DNA from: a virus | Length of the DNA: 38,116 nt | IMG/VR virus record: IMGVR_UViG_3300027861_000080 | Span: 1-38,116 of that record | Reading direction: 5' to 3' (one strand) | Shown: positions 1 to 38,116 of the stretch, piece after piece | Numbering within the stretch: the first letter of the stretch is position 1 | How the letters are laid out: every line of letters starts with the position of its first letter | Notes under the pieces: generated by a model | Database searches by the model: none | Seen by the model: the letters and a program-made list of their open reading frames with translations, nothing else | What the model was told of the DNA's origin: nothing | Made by a program: the position numbers and the translations under genes

Positions 1-144
1 ATCAAACACGTTGTTCAAAAACCGCAACGCAATCCAACCGGTGATTTTTTTTCCTTTCTTACGTTCGACGACTGACTCGATTTCATTAATCAATTCAGTA
101 TGCCACAACACAACCTTTTTAAGATTCTCAATTCCCTTTTTCAT
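1..144 (-). CDS. Unknown protein, first 48 codons only (cut by window edge)
   Basis: This is the start of the same gene that is complete at 37438-37785. The start codon is at 144-142 and the reading frame runs off the left edge. All six base differences from the other copy that fall inside this fragment are silent (for example Arg CGG versus CGT, Leu TTG versus CTG, Gly GGT versus GGA). That pattern fits a strain variant of one gene rather than a decaying duplicate. See the complete copy for the description. Confidence 0.75.
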   Translation of the reverse strand, partial: MKKGIENLKKVVLWHTELINEIESVVERKKGKKITGWIALRFLNNVFD

Positions 145-188
145 GTTTTAATTTTTTATTGAATAGTAAATTTTTAGGAAAATAATAA

Positions 189-196
189 TAATTTTG
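189..196 (+). promoter_or_regulatory. Possible -7 box of the rightward late operon
   Basis: TAATTTTG matches the Bacteroidota -7 consensus TAnnTTTG in the 79-base gap between the leftward gene (start at 144) and the rightward gene (start at 224). No TTG lies 20 bases upstream; the nearest, at 159-161, is 27 bases away. This is therefore at best half a consensus promoter, or one needing an activator, which would suit a late promoter. The box is conserved in the right-hand copy. Confidence 0.35.
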
Positions 197-223
197 TTAT
201 TTTTGAAACGAATCCGTGAAAAA

Positions 224-670
224 ATGCTATTTTATTTAATATCTGATAAAGAACTCCCTGAAGGTTGCACGATAGCAATTCCGCGAAACATGGTTTTGTT
301 TCAAGAATTCGAATCCGCAAACAAAGAGAAACACGAATCAGGATATTCGACGATTTACAAAGTAATTATTGACATAAAGATTCACGATCCGTTGATGATG
401 TCGCAGACCGAACACGTCTACACACCGGACGAATCAGGACGGTTTCCTGACCATTCAACAGATGACGGACTGTTCAGATTCGAATTGATGGACAAAATCA
501 CGAACATCGAAGAATCACGCGACATATTTTCAACGGTCGCACTATTGGAACAAATCAGACAATTCGGTTTTGATGCCGTCTTTGTCTTTAGTAATTTTAA
601 GCGAGAAATAATTGTAATCAATAAATGTTCAGCGAAAGTAATAGGAACAACAACAGAAGAAAAGTCGTAA
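224..670 (+). CDS. Unknown protein, first gene of the rightward operon
   Basis: This is a 148-residue acidic, soluble-looking protein that I do not recognise. I chose the ATG at 224 over a TTG at 194, because the TTG would put the start inside the -7-like box. Residues 10-18 differ strongly from the second copy at the right end of the window (for example ELPEGCTIA versus VLPDGCSIE), while the rest is nearly identical. This local change points to recombination or selection at one surface. The gene overlaps the next one by 46 bases. Its position ahead of the methyltransferase and terminase genes says nothing firm about its role. Confidence 0.7.
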   Translation: MLFYLISDKELPEGCTIAIPRNMVLFQEFESANKEKHESGYSTIYKVIIDIKIHDPLMMSQTEHVYTPDESGRFPDHSTDDGLFRFELMDKITNIEESRDIFSTVALLEQIRQFGFDAVFVFSNFKREIIVINKCSAKVIGTTTEEKS

Positions 671-1005
671 CATTGACGAAACGAGTCAAAGGTCTGTTTC
701 GTCTCGGACTGTTCCGCAAACCAAACAAGACACAGACGAACATCCTGACAGACGTCGGAGACATGACTCTCGGAATGATAGAGTTCTTAATTCGCGACGA
801 ATGGACGTCAACAAAACAGTATTTTGATAGCATCGAATCATTTTTATCGTTCGAAAGCAAAACATTTAATTATGTTCCTCCGTTAAAATATGAGATAGGA
901 CACATGATTGAAGTATCAAACATGATTTATTTACAACATCAAATCGTTGACCTGAGAAAGACATTCAAGTTTAAGGAAGACAGACAGACATCAACAAATG
1001 ACTAA
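625..1005 (+). CDS. Unknown basic protein
   Basis: The product is 126 residues. The first 35 are rich in Arg and Lys (RNNNRRKVVTLTKRVKG and following), which suggests nucleic-acid contact; the remainder is mixed helix with no motif I can name. The start lies inside the end of the preceding gene, and the stop overlaps the start of the methyltransferase gene, so the three genes are translationally packed. An in-frame ATG at 763 is a less likely internal start. Function unknown. Confidence 0.6.
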   Translation: MFSESNRNNNRRKVVTLTKRVKGLFRLGLFRKPNKTQTNILTDVGDMTLGMIEFLIRDEWTSTKQYFDSIESFLSFESKTFNYVPPLKYEIGHMIEVSNMIYLQHQIVDLRKTFKFKEDRQTSTND

Positions 1006-2140
1006 TAAAATTAAAATATCATCAATTAAACCGAATCCTGACAATCCGCGAATTGTCAAAGATGATAAATTTTATAAATTAGTTGAGAGCATCAAACAAT
1101 TCGGTGAAAAAATGTTTCCTTTGCGTCCGATTGTCGTCGATGAAAATAATATAATTTTAGGCGGGAATATGCGATATAAAGCATTAAAACACTTAAAATA
1201 CATAACAATTCCGGACACGTGGATAAAACAGACGACAAACCTGACAGACGACGAAAAAAAGGAATTCATAATAAAAGACAATGTTGGCTTCGGTTTGTGG
1301 GATTGGGACTTGTTGTCGTCAGATTGGGACGCGGACTTATTAGATTCTTGGGGAATGGACATTCCGGAATTTGAATTTCAGGAAATTGAAGCACAGGAGG
1401 ACAACTACGAAGAACCTGAACAAATTCAAGTCGATGTTGTTCATGGCGATTTGATAGAATTTGTTTGTCAAGACGGACGCGTTCACAGGCTTGTTTGTGG
1501 GGATTCAACGTGTATTGATACGGTAGAAAAATTAATGAAAGGAATCAAACCTGACTTAATTCATACTGATCCTCCCTATGGAATGAATGCCGTCAGCAAA
1601 AGCGGAGTGTTAAGCAAAAATTATACTTCAGATATTATTGGAGACGACAATAATGAAACTGCAAAAAAATCATTCAATTTAATTTTTTCTTTATATAAAG
1701 AATCTTTTCAGGTTTGGTGGGGAGCGAATTACTACTCTTCAATACTTCCTGATAGTGAATGTTGGTTAGTATGGGATAAAAACAACGGACAAAGCGACCA
1801 AACGGACTGCGAGGTTGCTTGGACAAATTTTAGAAGTGTAATTAGACAATTTACGAAAGCAAGCGAAAAGACAAACAGAGTTCATCCGACACAGAAACCG
1901 ATTGATTTGTTTAATTGGGTTTATTATAAGTTTAATTTAAAAATAGAAACGGTCGCAGATTTTTTCGGTGGTAGTGGTATGTCTTTAATAGCATCACACC
2001 AATTGAAACTTACTTGTTTTTTAATGGAATTTGATCCTTATTATTGTCAAATAATAATAGACAGAATGAGAAAATTTGATTCAAACATAAAAGTCAAAAT
2101 CAACAAAAAAGAATATAAAACAGAAGAAGTATTTTTTTAA
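998..2140 (+). CDS. ParB-like domain fused to an N6-adenine/N4-cytosine DNA methyltransferase
   Basis: The N-terminal ~110 residues form a ParB/sulfiredoxin-like fold, with NPDNPR near residue 13 and ILGGNMRYKAL near residue 53 (the ParB box). The C-terminal part is an amino-methyltransferase: DPPY at 191-194 (catalytic motif IV), HPTQKP at 296-301, and FFGGSGM at 322-328 (SAM-binding motif I). Motif IV before motif I is the beta-class order. Such fusions are common in phages next to terminase, where they modify phage DNA against host restriction. The specific target base and recognition site cannot be read from the sequence. The second half is richer in A/T-ending codons than the neighbours, suggesting separate acquisition. 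It lies 18 bases before the small terminase. Confidence 0.92.
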   Translation: MTNKIKISSIKPNPDNPRIVKDDKFYKLVESIKQFGEKMFPLRPIVVDENNIILGGNMRYKALKHLKYITIPDTWIKQTTNLTDDEKKEFIIKDNVGFGLWDWDLLSSDWDADLLDSWGMDIPEFEFQEIEAQEDNYEEPEQIQVDVVHGDLIEFVCQDGRVHRLVCGDSTCIDTVEKLMKGIKPDLIHTDPPYGMNAVSKSGVLSKNYTSDIIGDDNNETAKKSFNLIFSLYKESFQVWWGANYYSSILPDSECWLVWDKNNGQSDQTDCEVAWTNFRSVIRQFTKASEKTNRVHPTQKPIDLFNWVYYKFNLKIETVADFFGGSGMSLIASHQLKLTCFLMEFDPYYCQIIIDRMRKFDSNIKVKINKKEYKTEEVFF

Positions 2141-26817: not shown

Positions 26818-27045
26818 ATGAGACAACAAACAAGGCGATTGATAGCTGATTTGATTCGTCAGCACATGGACGACAACGGCATCACGTTCACGGATGAATG
26901 TCCGTTTCCGGTTTCGTGGCGGACGATTTGGTCAATTCGCGACATCAGGACACAGAGAAATTTCACGACAAAAACACAGATTTGTCTTTGTGAGTTCTTC
27001 GGATTGAAGTATGAACAGGACGGTCATGACCTTATTATATTATAA
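26818..27045 (+). CDS. Small Cro-sized DNA-binding protein candidate
   Basis: The product is 75 residues. The layout is: a helix with IRQHMDDNGI (residues 14-23), a short loop PFPVSWRTIWSIRDIRTQRN (about 29-48), then TKTQICLCEFFGLKYEQDGH. The last part recalls the final helix and hairpin of phage Cro/XRE-type regulators. It shares its pattern with the protein at 30316: H..DN, a V..R motif, then TK..L/C.EFFGL. It is the first gene after the interlocked promoters, exactly where a switch protein would sit. DNA binding is an inference. Confidence 0.5.
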   Translation: MRQQTRRLIADLIRQHMDDNGITFTDECPFPVSWRTIWSIRDIRTQRNFTTKTQICLCEFFGLKYEQDGHDLIIL

Positions 27046-28552: not shown

Positions 28553-28597
28553 ATTCGTGTGAAATGTTGCACGAATGAAAAACATTTTGTAGATTGC
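28553..28597 (+). promoter_or_regulatory. Operator-promoter of cassette A
   Basis: Inverted repeat ATTCGTG (28553-28559), ten bases TGAAATGTTG, CACGAAT (28570-28576). The TTG that ends the spacer (28567-28569) is also a -33 box, with 20 bases to TAGATTGC (28590-28597), a near match to TAnnTTTG. A regulator bound to the repeat would cover the -33 box. The same operator and spacing recur at 35960-36004. Confidence 0.75.
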
Positions 28598-28926: not shown

Positions 28927-28956
28927 CCGGAGGATGTCAGTCCTCCGGATTCTTTC
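28927..28956 (+). terminator. GGAGGA hairpin terminator of cassette A
   Basis: CCGGAGGA pairs with TCCTCCGG around TGTCAG, followed by ATTCTTTC. It begins 22 bases after the cargo stop. The core GGAGGA/TCCTCC stem is shared with the hairpins at 29626 and 36306. Confidence 0.75.
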
Positions 28957-28975
28957 AAACATCAACAACAACATC

Positions 28976-29203
28976 ATGACATCAACACAGGAATACATCG
29001 AAATATCTGACGAATGGAACGACGGCAATCTGTTCAGACTTGTCGCAACACGTCTCGGACACATCAACAACGCAGGACTCGAAACGATGACGGAAGACGG
29101 CAGTCGTTACTACTGCGACGACCTTCAGGACGTCAAAGACCTGACAGACATTTGTAAAGTATTAAACATATCATTCACAACCGGAACGGAAGTTCTGACA
29201 TAA
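28976..29203 (+). CDS. Unknown small acidic protein
   Basis: The product is 75 residues. The start at 28976 is fixed by the CAACAACATCATG leader; a longer frame back to 28883 would read through the hairpin terminator. The product is acidic (DEWNDGN, TEDGSRYYCDDLQDVKDLTD) and ends with TTGTEVLT. Acidic small phage proteins often mimic DNA or bind host enzymes, but that is only a general remark. Function unknown. Confidence 0.65.
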   Translation: MTSTQEYIEISDEWNDGNLFRLVATRLGHINNAGLETMTEDGSRYYCDDLQDVKDLTDICKVLNISFTTGTEVLT

Positions 29204-29217
29204 ACAACAACACTATC

Positions 29218-29616
29218 ATGAAAAATTCAAAAGAGAAAACAATCGAAATTATCAAAGACATTGAACTTCAAATCATCGGAACAATCTTCGCGAACGTGTC
29301 ATACAATCATGACGGTTTCGGTCGTCCGACAAGTCATAAATATCTTTCAGAGATTCACAAAAAACTCTGTTCTTTGCCGTCGATGGTCAAAGCATCCGAA
29401 AAGCATAACGAGAAAGAAAAATTCTTATCTGAAGAATTCGGATTTCAATTCACTCCATTGTTCAGGACGATTGAACAGATGGAAATTCGCGGACAGATAT
29501 TATTTGACGAAGACCTGAAGAGACAGGAAGAACGCGACAATCAACACGACGCGGACAGTCAACCGACAATCGCGGACGACGAAAACAGTAAGTACTTTAA
29601 TTTCGGCAAAAAATAA
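29218..29616 (+). CDS. Unknown protein
   Basis: The product is 132 residues. The start follows an AACAACAACACTATCATG leader. It is mostly helical and charged: the first half has KTIEIIKDIELQIIGTIF; the C-terminal third is very acidic (DEDLKRQEERDNQHDADSQ). It is followed by the GGAGGA hairpin at 29626. No family is recognised. Confidence 0.62.
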   Translation: MKNSKEKTIEIIKDIELQIIGTIFANVSYNHDGFGRPTSHKYLSEIHKKLCSLPSMVKASEKHNEKEKFLSEEFGFQFTPLFRTIEQMEIRGQILFDEDLKRQEERDNQHDADSQPTIADDENSKYFNFGKK

Positions 29617-29625
29617 ATCATTCAC

Positions 29626-29652
29626 GGAGGACATTCCGGTGTCCTCCATTTT
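29626..29652 (+). terminator. GGAGGACA hairpin terminator
   Basis: GGAGGACA (29626-29633) pairs perfectly with TGTCCTCC (29640-29647) around TTCCGG, followed by ATTTTC. It separates the unknown gene before it from the Gp157-like gene after it. A leader element AAACACTATTCAAAA (29654-29668) follows directly. Confidence 0.78.
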
Positions 29653-30315: not shown

Positions 30316-30570
30316 ATGAAAGATAAAGAAACAACAATCAGATTGTCAACGACAGAGATAAAACTGTCTAAAATGATACAAAAACACTTATCAGACAACA
30401 ACCTGATTCTCGACAAGGTCAGAACAGGAGAACAGACGTCAGACATTCCGGTCGGTGGTCGGTCTTTGTTCATGATTGTGAAACAACGTGAACGGATTTC
30501 TCTGAATCTTCAGACAAAACTGATTGAATTTTTCGGTCTTGATTGGGAGTTGAAAATCAAAAAATCATGA
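30316..30570 (+). CDS. Second Cro-sized DNA-binding protein candidate
   Basis: The product is 84 residues. It shares its pattern with the protein at 26818: IQKHLSDNNL, then IPVGGRSLFMIVKQRERISL, then LQTKLIEFFGLDWELK. The match includes spacing as well as residues, so the two look like paralogues. Such paired small proteins are often regulator and antagonist. No helix-turn-helix is certain. The TGA overlaps the next start (ATGA). Confidence 0.5.
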   Translation: MKDKETTIRLSTTEIKLSKMIQKHLSDNNLILDKVRTGEQTSDIPVGGRSLFMIVKQRERISLNLQTKLIEFFGLDWELKIKKS

Positions 30571-33639: not shown

Positions 33640-33654
33640 TTTTTTGTATATTTG
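33622..33654 (+). promoter_or_regulatory. Promoter candidate ahead of the structured region
   Basis: TATATTTG (33647-33654) matches the -7 consensus exactly; TTG at 33622-33624 lies 22 bases upstream, two more than in the better promoters. It overlaps the end of the preceding gene. Transcription would begin near 33661 and run into the long hairpin at 33725-33796. Confidence 0.55.
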
Positions 33655-33724
33655 TCAGGACGGACGGATTCGAACACGTGCGTCGAAGTTGAGCAAAAAA
33701 AGACATTATTAAATATTTGTAGCG

Positions 33725-33799
33725 AAAGCCACAAAAAGGAAACAGTCGTGTTTTTAATGTCAACACGTTCGAAACTGTTATCCTTTTTGTGGCTTTTTT
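33725..33799 (+). ncRNA. Strong long hairpin with T run: terminator, small RNA or leader attenuator
   Basis: AAAGCCACAAAAAGGA (33725-33740) pairs perfectly with TCCTTTTTGTGGCTTT (33781-33796). Stacked inside are AACAGT/ACTGTT (33741-33746 with 33774-33779) and CGTGTT/AACACG (33747-33752 with 33762-33767), with a one-base and a six-base (TTCGAA) bulge. Twenty-eight pairs in 72 bases is far more than a simple terminator needs. A T run closes it. With the promoter candidate at 33622, a transcript of about 140 bases is possible. It ends 14 bases before the initiator gene, whose expression it may control. Confidence 0.6.
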
Positions 33800-33812
33800 A
33801 ATTTATAATATT

Positions 33813-34688: not shown

Positions 34689-35445
34689 TTCCATCAGGAA
34701 GGAATTGCAATCTGAAGATTCTGAACGGATCGCAATCTGTCGCGCTCACGTCAAACAGATGATTCACACCGTCGTCGTTCTGTATACGTCCGCAAATTTC
34801 GACAAACAAGACAAGACAACGACAAACATCCTGATGACTGAATCCGCGAATTTCGTCCTGAAGAACTATCCGATGTTCAATCCGTCAGAAATCAAAACGG
34901 CATTCGAATTCGCGGCATCACATAAAACGAATGCAGACATTTCGACATATTACGGCAAATTTACAATTCAAATGCTCGGTGACGTCCTGAATGCCTATTT
35001 CAGATTAAGACAGAACGCAATCGCACGAATCGACAAGAAAGTCGAAATTGAACACAACCGACAAAGGAAAGCAGACGCAGACGAAAAGAACAGACAAGCA
35101 ATTCAGGACGTCGTCGATTTATATGGAGCATTGAAAACCGAATATCAGAACACCGGAGAGTTCGACGAACAGAAAGTGAAATCATTTCAGGGAAAGATTT
35201 TAGTCGATGCCGGACTGATAACATTCTCACGCAATGAGAAAGTCGAGATATACAACGAAGCAAAGGAAACCGTCACGAAGCAAATCAGAACAGGAGTTCA
35301 GGACATGACATTGAAGTCGACAGAAAGAAGGACATTAAAATCAATGCTGACCGACATCGTGAACGGAGACGAAAAGGACGATTTTAAATCTCGCGTCAAT
35401 TCTCAGTATTCAATTTTATTAATCAAAAAATCAATCATCGCATGA
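34561..35445 (+). CDS. Helicase-loader candidate (lambda P-like position)
   Basis: This is a 294-residue, mainly helical protein. It starts within the last 128 bases of the initiator gene, in another frame, after an AAACAACAAAAACAACAAA leader. Central parts: VLKNYPMFNPSEIKTAFEFA and ISTYYGKFTIQMLGDVLNAYFRLRQ, then a long charged helix (NRQRKADADEKNRQAIQDVV). No Walker motif, so it is not a DnaC-type ATPase. Its place directly after the O-like gene suggests a partner that brings host helicase to the origin, but that is inference. Confidence 0.5.
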   Translation: MKNEITTTTHNRTPEYMKILRDVSNETLLKNSELSEIIRCKNNSIRKELQSEDSERIAICRAHVKQMIHTVVVLYTSANFDKQDKTTTNILMTESANFVLKNYPMFNPSEIKTAFEFAASHKTNADISTYYGKFTIQMLGDVLNAYFRLRQNAIARIDKKVEIEHNRQRKADADEKNRQAIQDVVDLYGALKTEYQNTGEFDEQKVKSFQGKILVDAGLITFSRNEKVEIYNEAKETVTKQIRTGVQDMTLKSTERRTLKSMLTDIVNGDEKDDFKSRVNSQYSILLIKKSIIA

Positions 35446-35891
35446 TATTCGAAACACAGACAGACATCGACAGAGAGGACGCGACCGTTCTCCGATTCGT
35501 CCATCACATGACCGACCAATATAATCAATTCGAAAATTGCACGTTCGTCAAACTCGGACGTTTCGAACTTGACTATCTGATACAACTCCGGAACGGTAAA
35601 CGAATCACAATCGAAGTGAAAGGAGTGAACGGTCATTCTGTCGATTCAAATCATGTTCCGGTCGTGTCGGTCATGAAAGTCGAGAAAATGCAAAAATCAG
35701 TAAATCAGAACGGATTCAATGCGTCCTATATTCTGTTTGCATATCACGACGGCATCAGGTTCGAAGAACTCCGCAACCTGAAAGGTCGGTTTTGTTGGTC
35801 AGGACGGAAGGAACCGAGAAACGGAAGTACTAACGACAGGGAGATGATTTTGATATTCGACACGACGGAGTTCAAAAAAATCACTTTTTGA
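35442..35891 (+). CDS. PD-(D/E)XK-family nuclease
   Basis: The product is 149 residues. Catalytic pattern: Asp44 in FELDYLIQL, then Glu58 and Lys60 in ITIEVKG, i.e. D-X13-E-X-K in strand context, typical of PD-(D/E)XK enzymes. A C-terminal part with CWSGRKEPRN may help DNA binding. It may process recombination intermediates or degrade host DNA. The start overlaps the preceding stop (ATGA). It ends the replication transcript before cassette B. Confidence 0.75.
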   Translation: MIFETQTDIDREDATVLRFVHHMTDQYNQFENCTFVKLGRFELDYLIQLRNGKRITIEVKGVNGHSVDSNHVPVVSVMKVEKMQKSVNQNGFNASYILFAYHDGIRFEELRNLKGRFCWSGRKEPRNGSTNDREMILIFDTTEFKKITF

Positions 35892-35959: not shown

Positions 35960-36004
35960 ATTCGTGTGAAAGCTTGCACGAATGAGAAAGAAAAGTGATA
36001 TTTG
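35960..36004 (+). promoter_or_regulatory. Operator-promoter of cassette B
   Basis: Inverted repeat ATTCGTG (35960-35966), ten bases TGAAAGCTTG, CACGAAT (35977-35983). The TTG at 35974-35976 is the -33 box, followed by 20 bases and GATATTTG (35997-36004), one base off TAnnTTTG. Arms, spacing, the TGAAA..TTG spacer pattern and box positions equal those of cassette A. Confidence 0.8.
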
Positions 36005-36057
36005 AATTGTCAACAACGAAGTAATTAAATAATTTTTAATCAAACAACAACACCGAC

Positions 36058-36294
36058 ATGAAAACATTAACATTCAAATCAGCAATTCCAAGAAAAGACA
36101 GAAAATCAAATCAATATGTTTATGATATAATAACACTTTACAATGTAGAATTTATATCTGTTTCCGATGGGAAAGATTGGTTTTGCGAGAAAGGACAGGA
36201 TGTCAATTCATACAGAGGAACAACAACGAAAAACGGCAAAAAAATTGCTTATTGTATGCCGAAACAAGTCATCGAATTAAATACAATAAAATAA
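36058..36294 (+). CDS. Unknown small protein, cargo of cassette B
   Basis: The product is 78 residues, basic, with two Cys. Beta-rich middle (YVYDIITLYNVEFISVSDGK) and a loop-rich part (QDVNSYRGTTTKNGKKIAY). It is not detectably similar to the cargo of cassette A, apart from the start METL/MKTL. The leader has CAAACAACAACACCGACATG. It lies between its own operator-promoter and a GGAGGAC terminator. Function unknown. Confidence 0.68.
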   Translation: MKTLTFKSAIPRKDRKSNQYVYDIITLYNVEFISVSDGKDWFCEKGQDVNSYRGTTTKNGKKIAYCMPKQVIELNTIK

Positions 36295-36305
36295 ACCAAT
36301 CACAA

Positions 36306-36330
36306 GGAGGACGCGAGTCCTCCGATTTTT
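36306..36330 (+). terminator. GGAGGAC hairpin terminator of cassette B
   Basis: GGAGGAC pairs perfectly with GTCCTCC around the tetraloop GCGA, followed by GATTTTT. It begins 11 bases after the cargo stop and has the same core as the terminator of cassette A. Confidence 0.82.
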
Positions 36331-36349
36331 AACTTTCAACAACAACATC

Positions 36350-36562
36350 ATGATTTCATACATTCACAAAGGAAAGGAACACACCGGAAACGTTCACACC
36401 GGATTCAAAGATTTCTTATATTTTTACGACAGAAGTATAAAATTGTGGACAGTTTATCCTATCGACGCGGACGAATATCAAATTGATGTCGCGGAGTATT
36501 ATCAGAACAAACAACAAATTCAAGAACAATATAATTTCACATTTAAAACAACAACATCATGA
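36350..36562 (+). CDS. Unknown small protein
   Basis: The product is 70 residues, following a full CAACAACAACATCATG leader. The first half looks like a small beta barrel (MISYIHKGKEHTGNVHTGF, FLYFYDRSIKLWTVYPI), as in KTSC/SH3-like folds; the second is a helical tail rich in Gln and Asn. The stop overlaps the next start. No family is certain. Confidence 0.6.
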   Translation: MISYIHKGKEHTGNVHTGFKDFLYFYDRSIKLWTVYPIDADEYQIDVAEYYQNKQQIQEQYNFTFKTTTS

Positions 36563-36810
36563 AAATTATCAAAACAGAAACAGACACAGAATTCAAACCT
36601 TTCGCTTTAGTAATCGCAAAAGACGAATCAGATGCAGAAATATATGCACAGGAAAACGCGTATCTGATTGATGAATATTTCGAAGGAATGGAAACAGGAT
36701 CCGCGACAGAACTCGACAAATCAGATTTTCAAACCGAAATCGAGAACACGAATTCAATCCGTCCGTGGCGTATAAATAGCTTTAAAGTATTTCGCGTTCC
36801 ATTCAATTAA
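36559..36810 (+). CDS. Unknown small acidic protein
   Basis: The product is 83 residues, starting with an ATGA overlap and an ACAACAACATCATG leader that lies inside the preceding gene. Acidic middle (AKDESDAEIYAQENAYLIDE) and a basic end (NSIRPWRINSFKVFRVPFN). It ends before a strong terminator. Function unknown. Confidence 0.6.
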   Translation: MKIIKTETDTEFKPFALVIAKDESDAEIYAQENAYLIDEYFEGMETGSATELDKSDFQTEIENTNSIRPWRINSFKVFRVPFN

Positions 36811-36831
36811 TAACGACAGACAAATCAATCA

Positions 36832-36862
36832 GGCAATCATTCACGTGATTGTCTTTTTTTTT
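36832..36862 (+). terminator. Rho-independent terminator
   Basis: GGCAATCA pairs with TGATTGTC (one G-T) around TTCACG, followed by nine T. This is one of the clearest terminators of the window and ends the transcript from cassette B and the small genes after it. Confidence 0.88.
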
Positions 36863-36875
36863 GTATATTACACAC

Positions 36876-36968
36876 AAAGACGGGAATTCATTTATTTTCA
36901 TTTTATAAACTTAACAGTTAAAAATGTTTAGATGTGACTAAATCAGATATATCTCCCGTCTTTTTTTT
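36876..36968 (+). terminator. Long-loop inverted repeat with T run
   Basis: AAAGACGGGA (36876-36885) pairs perfectly with TCCCGTCTTT (36954-36963), and the T run continues for five more bases. The 68-base interior has no start in a useful frame. It stands immediately after another terminator, so the inner 68 bases may be a small RNA or a leader element for the gene at 36991. It resembles the element at 30214-30300 in plan. Confidence 0.55.
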
Positions 36969-36990: not shown

Positions 36991-37185
36991 ATGAGACACG
37001 AAATCAAACCGTCCAAAATCAACAACACAAAACAACTGAATCCTGACAACGACGTCAGACTGTCCGCATTGAAACAACTCCGGAATGATAGGACTGCGAT
37101 AAATAGCGAATTAAGGAAGTTCTTAAGATTAGACAACGAAACACACGACAACATCATAAAGATGTCTAAAATCGGCAAAATATGA
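36991..37185 (+). CDS. Unknown small basic protein
   Basis: The product is 64 residues. The ATG at 36991 follows the AAACAACAAC leader and is preferred over 36934, which lies inside the long-loop hairpin. It is basic and helical (RLSALKQLRNDRTAINSELR). The stop overlaps the next start (ATGA). Confidence 0.58.
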   Translation: MRHEIKPSKINNTKQLNPDNDVRLSALKQLRNDRTAINSELRKFLRLDNETHDNIIKMSKIGKI

Positions 37186-37367
37186 CGAATGAAGAGATAA
37201 ACAACGGACTCGACGAAATGCAAAGGAAGATAAAACAACAATCTGAACGCATCGAACTATTGAACAACGCAATCGACGAATTCAAAAAACAATGTGACAA
37301 CATCGTCAAACTGACAAAATCAACACAGGACGAATTCAACGCGTCCGTTCCTGATGATGACCTATAG
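37182..37367 (+). CDS. Small coiled-coil protein
   Basis: The product is 61 residues with a clear heptad pattern through residues 6-45 (LDEMQRKIKQQSERIELLNN), then an acidic end (SVPDDDL). It is the last rightward gene and faces the leftward gene at 37438. Function unknown. Confidence 0.55.
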   Translation: MTNEEINNGLDEMQRKIKQQSERIELLNNAIDEFKKQCDNIVKLTKSTQDEFNASVPDDDL

Positions 37368-37437: not shown

Positions 37438-37785
37438 CTATTTCTTTCCTTGAATGTAAAAGTCAATTGTGTCTCCAATCTCGATAATAAGATAAAAAAT
37501 CCTTTCGACAAATTCCTCGGTGACGTCGTCCTTCAGGTTCATGTTTGACTTAATCAACAGATTCAACTCCTGTTTTTCTGAATCGTCCAAGTCTTCGAAT
37601 TCCTTTCCTACCTCTTGATAGTTCATAATAATCGGAACGGCATCAAACACGTTGTTCAGAAAACGCAACGCAATCCATCCGGTGATTTTTTTTCCTTTCT
37701 TACGTTCGACGACTGACTCGATTTCATTAATCAATTCAGTATGCCACAACACAACCTTTTTTAAGTTCTCAATTCCCTTTTTCAT
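37438..37785 (-). CDS. Unknown protein, single leftward gene
   Basis: The product is 115 residues. It is helical, with a basic first third (ENLKKVVLW, ERKKGKKITGWIALRFLNN) and an acidic middle (GKEFEDLDDSEKQELN). The end is hydrophobic (ERIFYLIIEIGDTIDFYIQG), perhaps an amphipathic helix. It has its own terminator and is divergent to the late operon; single divergent genes at this place often regulate the operon, but no DNA-binding motif is visible. Its 5' part is repeated at 1-144. Confidence 0.7.
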   Translation of the reverse strand: MKKGIENLKKVVLWHTELINEIESVVERKKGKKITGWIALRFLNNVFDAVPIIMNYQEVGKEFEDLDDSEKQELNLLIKSNMNLKDDVTEEFVERIFYLIIEIGDTIDFYIQGKK

Positions 37786-38116
37786 GTTTTAATTTTTTAT
37801 TGAATAGTAAATTTTTAGGAAAATAATAATAATTTTGTTATTTTTGAAACGAATCCGTGAAAAAATGCTATTTTATTTAATATCTGATAAAGTTCTTCCT
37901 GATGGTTGTTCAATCGAGATTCCGCGAAACATGGTTCTGTTTCAAGAATTCGAATCCGCAAACAAAGAGAAACACGAATCAGGATATTCGACGATTTACA
38001 AAGTAATTATTGACATAAAGATTCATGATCCGTTGATGATGTCGCAGACTGAACACGTCTACACACCTGACGAATCAGGACGGTTTCCTGACCATTCAAC
38101 AGATGACGGACTGTTC
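37642..38116. repeat. Right copy of the imperfect terminal direct repeat
   Basis: This matches bases 1-475 with about 20 mismatches and no net length difference. The mismatches in the leftward gene are silent. Those in the rightward gene cluster in one short stretch (37895-37920) and change several residues. See the left copy. Confidence 0.9.
37865..38116 (+). CDS. Unknown protein, 5' part (second copy of the gene at 224)
   Basis: This is the first 84 codons of the same gene as 224-670, cut by the right edge. Residues 10-18 differ (VLPDGCSIE versus ELPEGCTIA); later differences are silent. It is counted as the wrap-around copy rather than a separate gene. Confidence 0.72.
   Translation, partial: MLFYLISDKVLPDGCSIEIPRNMVLFQEFESANKEKHESGYSTIYKVIIDIKIHDPLMMSQTEHVYTPDESGRFPDHSTDDGLF

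What the first reader, a model, noticed from the sequence alone, without database searches (positions are those of the whole stretch)
35960..36330. Cassette B: same regulatory parts, unrelated cargo
Seen: operator-promoter as in cassette A, leader with CAAACAACAACA, 78-residue gene, then a GGAGGAC hairpin terminator. The two cargo proteins do not align beyond METL/MKTL. Inference: this is a repeated slot architecture with interchangeable contents, like known anti-CRISPR loci, where a shared regulator controls varied small genes. The pair gives a way to find further cargo genes by guilt by association: search for the operator, then read the next small gene.
Basis: partly seen in the sequence, partly recalled or inferred. 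Interest (0 to 1): 0.82.

Follow-up and report, generated by a model that had tools for sequence, protein, structure and literature searches.

The report
Twin-operator accessory genes in a phage
A Bacteroidota-type phage carries the same 24-base control palindrome in front of two unrelated, unusually AT-rich small genes of unknown function, and in two related phages the second of these positions holds other genes, so it is a swappable accessory slot whose cargo is worth testing but is not shown to be anti-CRISPR.

Summary
The operator, promoter spacing, 78-residue gene and hairpin are all at the stated coordinates. The operator pair is real: ATTCGTG-N10-CACGAAT occurs perfectly only at 28553 and 35960. 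It is better read as two half-sites, ATTCGTGCAA-N4-TTGCACGAAT, with 2 mismatches at each window site; no shuffled sequence had even one site within 3 mismatches. Both copies bury the TTG of a Bacteroidota-type -33 element, 20 bases before a degenerate -7 element. The 3' hairpin flanks are also homologous, but a third such hairpin has no operator. CAACAACA is a genome-wide leader motif and is not cassette-specific. The two cargos are unrelated to each other and to anything searched, and they have the lowest GC3 of the 53 genes tabulated. Neither cassette is a closed one-gene unit: only 26 nt separate hairpin and next start codon, so each cargo is probably the first cistron of an operon. Locus B varies between relatives. 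Contig L043 keeps a diverged operator and promoter but carries a 279-residue gene. Contig L044 carries a 159-residue nuclease-like gene and no operator. Most likely reading: two co-repressed accessory (moron-like) operons. The anti-CRISPR analogy is untested, and the regulator is unidentified.

The parts
28553..28576 (+). operator A: ATTCGTGTGA-AATG-TTGCACGAAT (two half-sites)
28567..28597 (+). inferred promoter A: TTG(-33) - 20 nt - TAGATTGC(-7)
   Evidence: sequence and pattern hit; consensus TTTG/TANNTTTG from PMC6847099
28648..28905 (+). cargo A, 85 aa, GC 0.24, GC3 0.128; no homologue found
28927..28948 (+). GGAGGA hairpin after cargo A, weak T-tail
28976..29203 (+). 75-aa gene, second cistron of unit A
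29626..29647 (+). third GGAGGA hairpin, no operator of its own
35960..35983 (+). operator B: ATTCGTGTGA-AAGC-TTGCACGAAT
35974..36004 (+). inferred promoter B: TTG(-33) - 20 nt - GATATTTG(-7)
36058..36294 (+). cargo B, 78 aa, GC 0.295, GC3 0.241; no homologue found
36306..36323 (+). GGAGGAC hairpin after cargo B; flank homologous to that of A (0/2000 shuffles)
36350..36562 (+). 70-aa gene, second cistron of unit B
36559..36810 (+). 83-aa gene, third cistron of unit B
36831..36862 (+). strong intrinsic terminator ending unit B (10-bp stem plus run of T)
35442..35891 (+). conserved upstream flank of locus B, PDDEXK_14-type nuclease; 60% homologue in L044
36991..37185 (+). conserved downstream flank of locus B; homologues in L043 and L044
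30316..30570 (+). small protein, candidate regulator (paralogue of 26818-27045); HTH nature not confirmed
26818..27045 (+). small protein, candidate regulator (paralogue of 30316-30570)

Best explanation
Locus B (35960-36862) and unit A (from 28553) are two separately placed phage operons under one regulator. The regulator, probably a dimer, binds a 24-bp palindrome (ideal half-site TTGCACGAAT) that covers the -33 element of a Bacteroidota-type promoter and represses it at some stage of infection. The first cistron of each operon is an AT-rich accessory gene of separate origin (moron-like). A GGAGGA hairpin behind it partly terminates transcription or protects the 3' end, so the first gene is made in excess over those downstream. 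Locus B is an accessory position whose contents are exchanged between related phages. Shown by sequence: the operator pair, its overlap with the TTG, the hairpin-flank homology, the composition, and different genes at locus B in two relatives. Inferred: promoter activity, repression rather than activation, partial termination, and cargo function (most likely host takeover or counter-defence).
For: Two sites and no chance sites; random-model sequences of the window gave none below 4 mismatches in 60 runs. L043, the contig with 79% terminase identity, has ATTCATGCAAAAAGTTGCACGGAA at 62-85, with TATATTGC 20 nt after its TTG. It lies directly before its locus-B gene: 5 of 22 positions differ from the A/B consensus, and 0 of 1000 shuffles of that 141-nt region do as well. 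Locus-B content: window 78+70+83 aa, L043 279 aa, L044 159 aa (PDDEXK_14, E 5.9e-06), between homologous flanks. Cargo GC3 0.128 and 0.241 are the two lowest of 53 genes. Hairpin-flank homology scores 66 against a shuffle maximum of 39. Only 26-27 nt separate hairpin and next ATG in both units, which leaves no room for a further promoter there.
Against: No regulator was identified: the two candidate proteins match no HTH profile or solved structure. The -7 elements are degenerate, and promoter-like matches are only modestly above shuffles (34 on the + strand against about 20), so promoter activity is unproven and an activator role for the palindrome is possible. Only two relatives cover locus B; L044 lacks the operator, and L043's contig starts 61 nt before it, so its upstream flank is only partly seen. 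The atypical composition could reflect selection on expression instead of origin.
Confidence: 0.6

Rival explanations
1. Ordinary early-operon control, as with lambda pL/pR: one repressor binds the same operator at two early promoters, and the cargos are simply the first genes of two core early operons. There is no slot and no moron.
For: Only two operators exist in the genome. Unit A continues towards replication/recombination-type genes (Gp157, a C5 methylase). The phage looks complete: the ends overlap by 475 nt.
Against: The first genes are compositional outliers, are not found in the relatives searched, and locus B is filled differently in L043 and L044. No integrase or CI-like repressor was seen.
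Confidence: 0.25
2. Anti-CRISPR or general anti-defence locus in the strict sense: cargos A and B inhibit host immunity and are regulated by an Aca-like protein.
For: Layout only: small orphan genes, palindrome over the promoter, variable content. Aca1 and Aca2 bind inverted repeats over their promoters (PMC8434428). Shared early regulatory sequences have led to anti-defence genes in archaeal viruses (PMC11065993).
Against: No homology to any profile in the libraries searched, including PADLOC. No aca gene recognised in either cassette. L044 carries a nuclease-like gene at the same place.
Confidence: 0.2
3. The palindrome is an activator site (phage or host regulator) that compensates for weak -7 elements, so the two units are switched on together instead of being repressed.
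For: Both -7 elements depart from positions reported as nearly invariant (TANNTTTG, revised to TAHHTTTG).
Against: The site covers the -33 element completely, with its centre near -37.5 by the inferred promoter, which fits blocking of RNA polymerase better.
Confidence: 0.2

Closest known systems
acr-aca operons (e.g. acrIF8-aca2 of phage ZF40)
   Same: Small genes behind a promoter overlapped by an inverted repeat
   Different: No HTH gene recognised in the cassette; no homology to a described defence or counter-defence family; two distant loci share the operator; cargo function unknown
Early-gene regulatory sequences of archaeal viruses used to find anti-defence genes (PMC11065993)
   Same: A shared regulatory sequence precedes dissimilar small genes
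   Different: Only two sites here; bacterial phage; the common part is a palindrome over a -33 element, not a TATA/BRE promoter
Phage morons
   Same: Extra gene with promoter-like and terminator-like elements and atypical base composition, not found in relatives
   Different: Followed by further genes probably read from the same promoter; hairpin has a weak T-tail; shares an operator with a second locus
Lambda pL/pR with oL/oR
   Same: One regulator site repeated at two promoters with unrelated first genes
   Different: Single site per promoter, both on the same strand, no integrase or CI-like gene recognised

Membership tests
anti-CRISPR locus (acr-aca) | inhibits CRISPR-Cas | not testable with these tools
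   needs a plating or interference assay
anti-CRISPR locus (acr-aca) | HTH aca gene in the same operon | tested here: inconclusive
   none adjacent; 30316-30570 lies downstream of unit A but matches no HTH profile
anti-CRISPR locus (acr-aca) | inverted repeat overlapping the promoter | tested here: met
   (promoter inferred from consensus)
anti-CRISPR locus (acr-aca) | homology to a described defence or counter-defence family (not strictly required of new Acrs) | tested here: not met
   PADLOC, Pfam, NCBIfam: none
moron | atypical base composition | tested here: met
   lowest and second-lowest GC3 of 53 genes
moron | own promoter and terminator | tested here: inconclusive
   promoter-like and hairpin elements present, T-tails weak, downstream genes probably co-transcribed
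moron | present or absent between related phages | tested here: met
   locus B contents differ in L043 and L044; two relatives only
lambda-type two-operator early control | same operator at two early promoters, bound by a phage repressor | tested here: inconclusive
   operator pair met; repressor not found; expression time unknown

The most novel reading that the evidence does not exclude
A phage-wide regulon in an undescribed Bacteroidota phage group in which one regulator controls dispersed, exchangeable gene slots (operator-promoter, cargo, GGAGGA hairpin), the cargos being new counter-defence proteins without known relatives.
Probability: 0.2. Interest if true: 0.7.

Novelty: new member of a known kind. 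Interest (0 to 1): 0.42.

Why it matters
To my knowledge few early regulators or counter-defence genes have been characterised in Bacteroidota phages. A defined 24-bp operator plus an exchangeable position gives a concrete handle for collecting candidate host-takeover genes in this group, and two genes without recognisable relatives are ready to be tested. If the cargos turn out to be ordinary early genes, the result is a routine repressor regulon.

Tried and rejected
Exact operator patterns in IMG/VR and GTDB genomes: no hit. Looser 16-base matches in L048, L050 and L052 lie inside the same conserved coding gene and were rejected. Cargo homology in IMG/VR, phage records and plasmids: none. 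AlphaFold models of both cargos from single sequences have mean pLDDT 53 and 55 and were not used for fold searches. Rfam: no family in the window or in L043, L044, L046. Blastn of the L043 operator region in phage records: chance-level hits only. Common leader of A and B as a cassette part: rejected, no better than shuffles. Profile of the two small paralogous proteins and a relative against solved structures: no HTH match. Genome-collection scan with the gene upstream of the locus-B flank (34561): no relative, so no host or prophage context was obtained.

Full report
What the window is. It is a virus record of 38,116 bases whose ends overlap: bases 1-475 match 37642-38116 at 455 of 475 positions, so a circular map of about 37.6 kb is likely. 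Terminase relatives are environmental contigs and, more distantly, Bacteroides, Parabacteroides and Phocaeicola phages. Many start codons are preceded by A-rich AACAACAACATC leaders without an evident Shine-Dalgarno sequence, in keeping with what is described for Bacteroidetes (PMC6847099). No integrase was recognised among the proteins scanned.

The observation. The perfect palindrome lies at 28553 and 35960 only. Allowing for the inner bases, the site is two half-sites of TTGCACGAAT separated by four bases. Both window sites have a perfect right half and two mismatches in the left half, and no shuffled sequence had a match within three mismatches. The TTG of the right half sits 20 bases before TAGATTGC (A) or GATATTTG (B), which fits the -33/-7 spacing of the Bacteroidetes consensus TTTG/TANNTTTG. 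The -7 elements are imperfect, so the promoters are inferred.

What is and is not part of the cassette. Downstream flanks of A and B are truly homologous: hairpin, short T-tail and the next gene's leader score 66 against a shuffle maximum of 39. A third hairpin of this type follows the gene at 29218-29616 without any operator. The leader motif CAACAACA is genome-wide (31 copies, 3.4 expected), and the A and B leaders are not more alike than shuffles. Only 26-27 bases separate the hairpin from the next ATG in both units, so the downstream genes are probably read from the same promoter. Unit B ends at the strong terminator at 36831-36862. The unit is therefore best read as an operon with a favoured first gene, not a sealed one-gene cassette.

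The cargos. Cargo A (85 aa) and cargo B (78 aa) do not align significantly. They have no relatives in IMG/VR by peptide scan, in phage or plasmid records by tblastn, or in Pfam, PHROGs, NCBIfam or PADLOC at a meaningful score. They have the lowest and second-lowest GC3 of the 53 genes tabulated (0.128 and 0.241). Predicted structures are of low confidence and were not interpreted.

Relatives at locus B. In contig L044 (82% terminase identity) the homologues of 33813, 34561 and 35442 are followed by a 159-residue PDDEXK_14-like gene, then by the homologue of 36991; there is no operator. Contig L043 (79% terminase identity) begins just upstream of a diverged operator, ATTCATGCAAAAAGTTGCACGGAA, with TATATTGC exactly 20 bases after its TTG. 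A 279-residue gene follows, then a strong terminator and the homologue of 36991. Five of 22 positions differ from the A/B consensus; none of 1000 shuffles of that 141-base region comes as close. The 279-residue protein has relatives of unknown function in Tenacibaculum and Cellulophaga phages, mostly over its N-terminal part. The locus is thus variable between flanks that persist, and in L043 the operator-promoter persisted while the cargo changed. More distant relatives (L060-L069) have no operator.

Mechanism. The best-supported reading is a regulator dimer occluding the -33 element at two promoters. The operator centre is near -37.5 by the inferred promoter. Candidate regulators are two small paralogous proteins (26818-27045 and 30316-30570), but no helix-turn-helix match was found for them. 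Activation instead of repression is not excluded. Counter-defence or host-takeover function of the cargos is inference from position and composition only.

Comparison with known systems. It works like a repressor regulon over accessory genes. It resembles acr-aca operons in having an inverted repeat over the promoter (PMC8434428), and resembles the archaeal-virus case in which a shared early regulatory sequence precedes dissimilar genes (PMC11065993). Membership in the anti-CRISPR class is not established, since its defining activity is untested and no aca gene was recognised. Two of three moron features are met and the third is inconclusive.

Noticed in passing
window 36857-36968 and 33640-33800; L043 1009-1180 (two in tandem); L044 2475-2557: Short units without an obvious gene: a TTTTTTTGTATATT promoter-like sequence followed by 70-150 nt that fold into an end-to-end stem and mostly finish in a T-run (z about -1.8 to -4.1). 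They look like small RNAs conserved in position but not in sequence; no Rfam match in the window, L043 or L044.
   Followed up: partly
window 1-475 and 37642-38116: The contig ends overlap but are only 95.8% identical, with half of the differences clustered at 252-277, suggesting strain mixture or recombination in the population.
   Followed up: partly
L044 3065-3340: A 91-aa gene with GC3 0.185, another AT-rich gene near locus B; the window has no gene between 36991-37185 and 37182-37367, the homologues on either side of this stretch.
   Followed up: no
window 998-2140: ParB-like domain joined to a DNA methylase; the homologue in the otherwise closely related contig L042 (97% terminase identity) is only 62% identical, suggesting replacement.
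   Followed up: no
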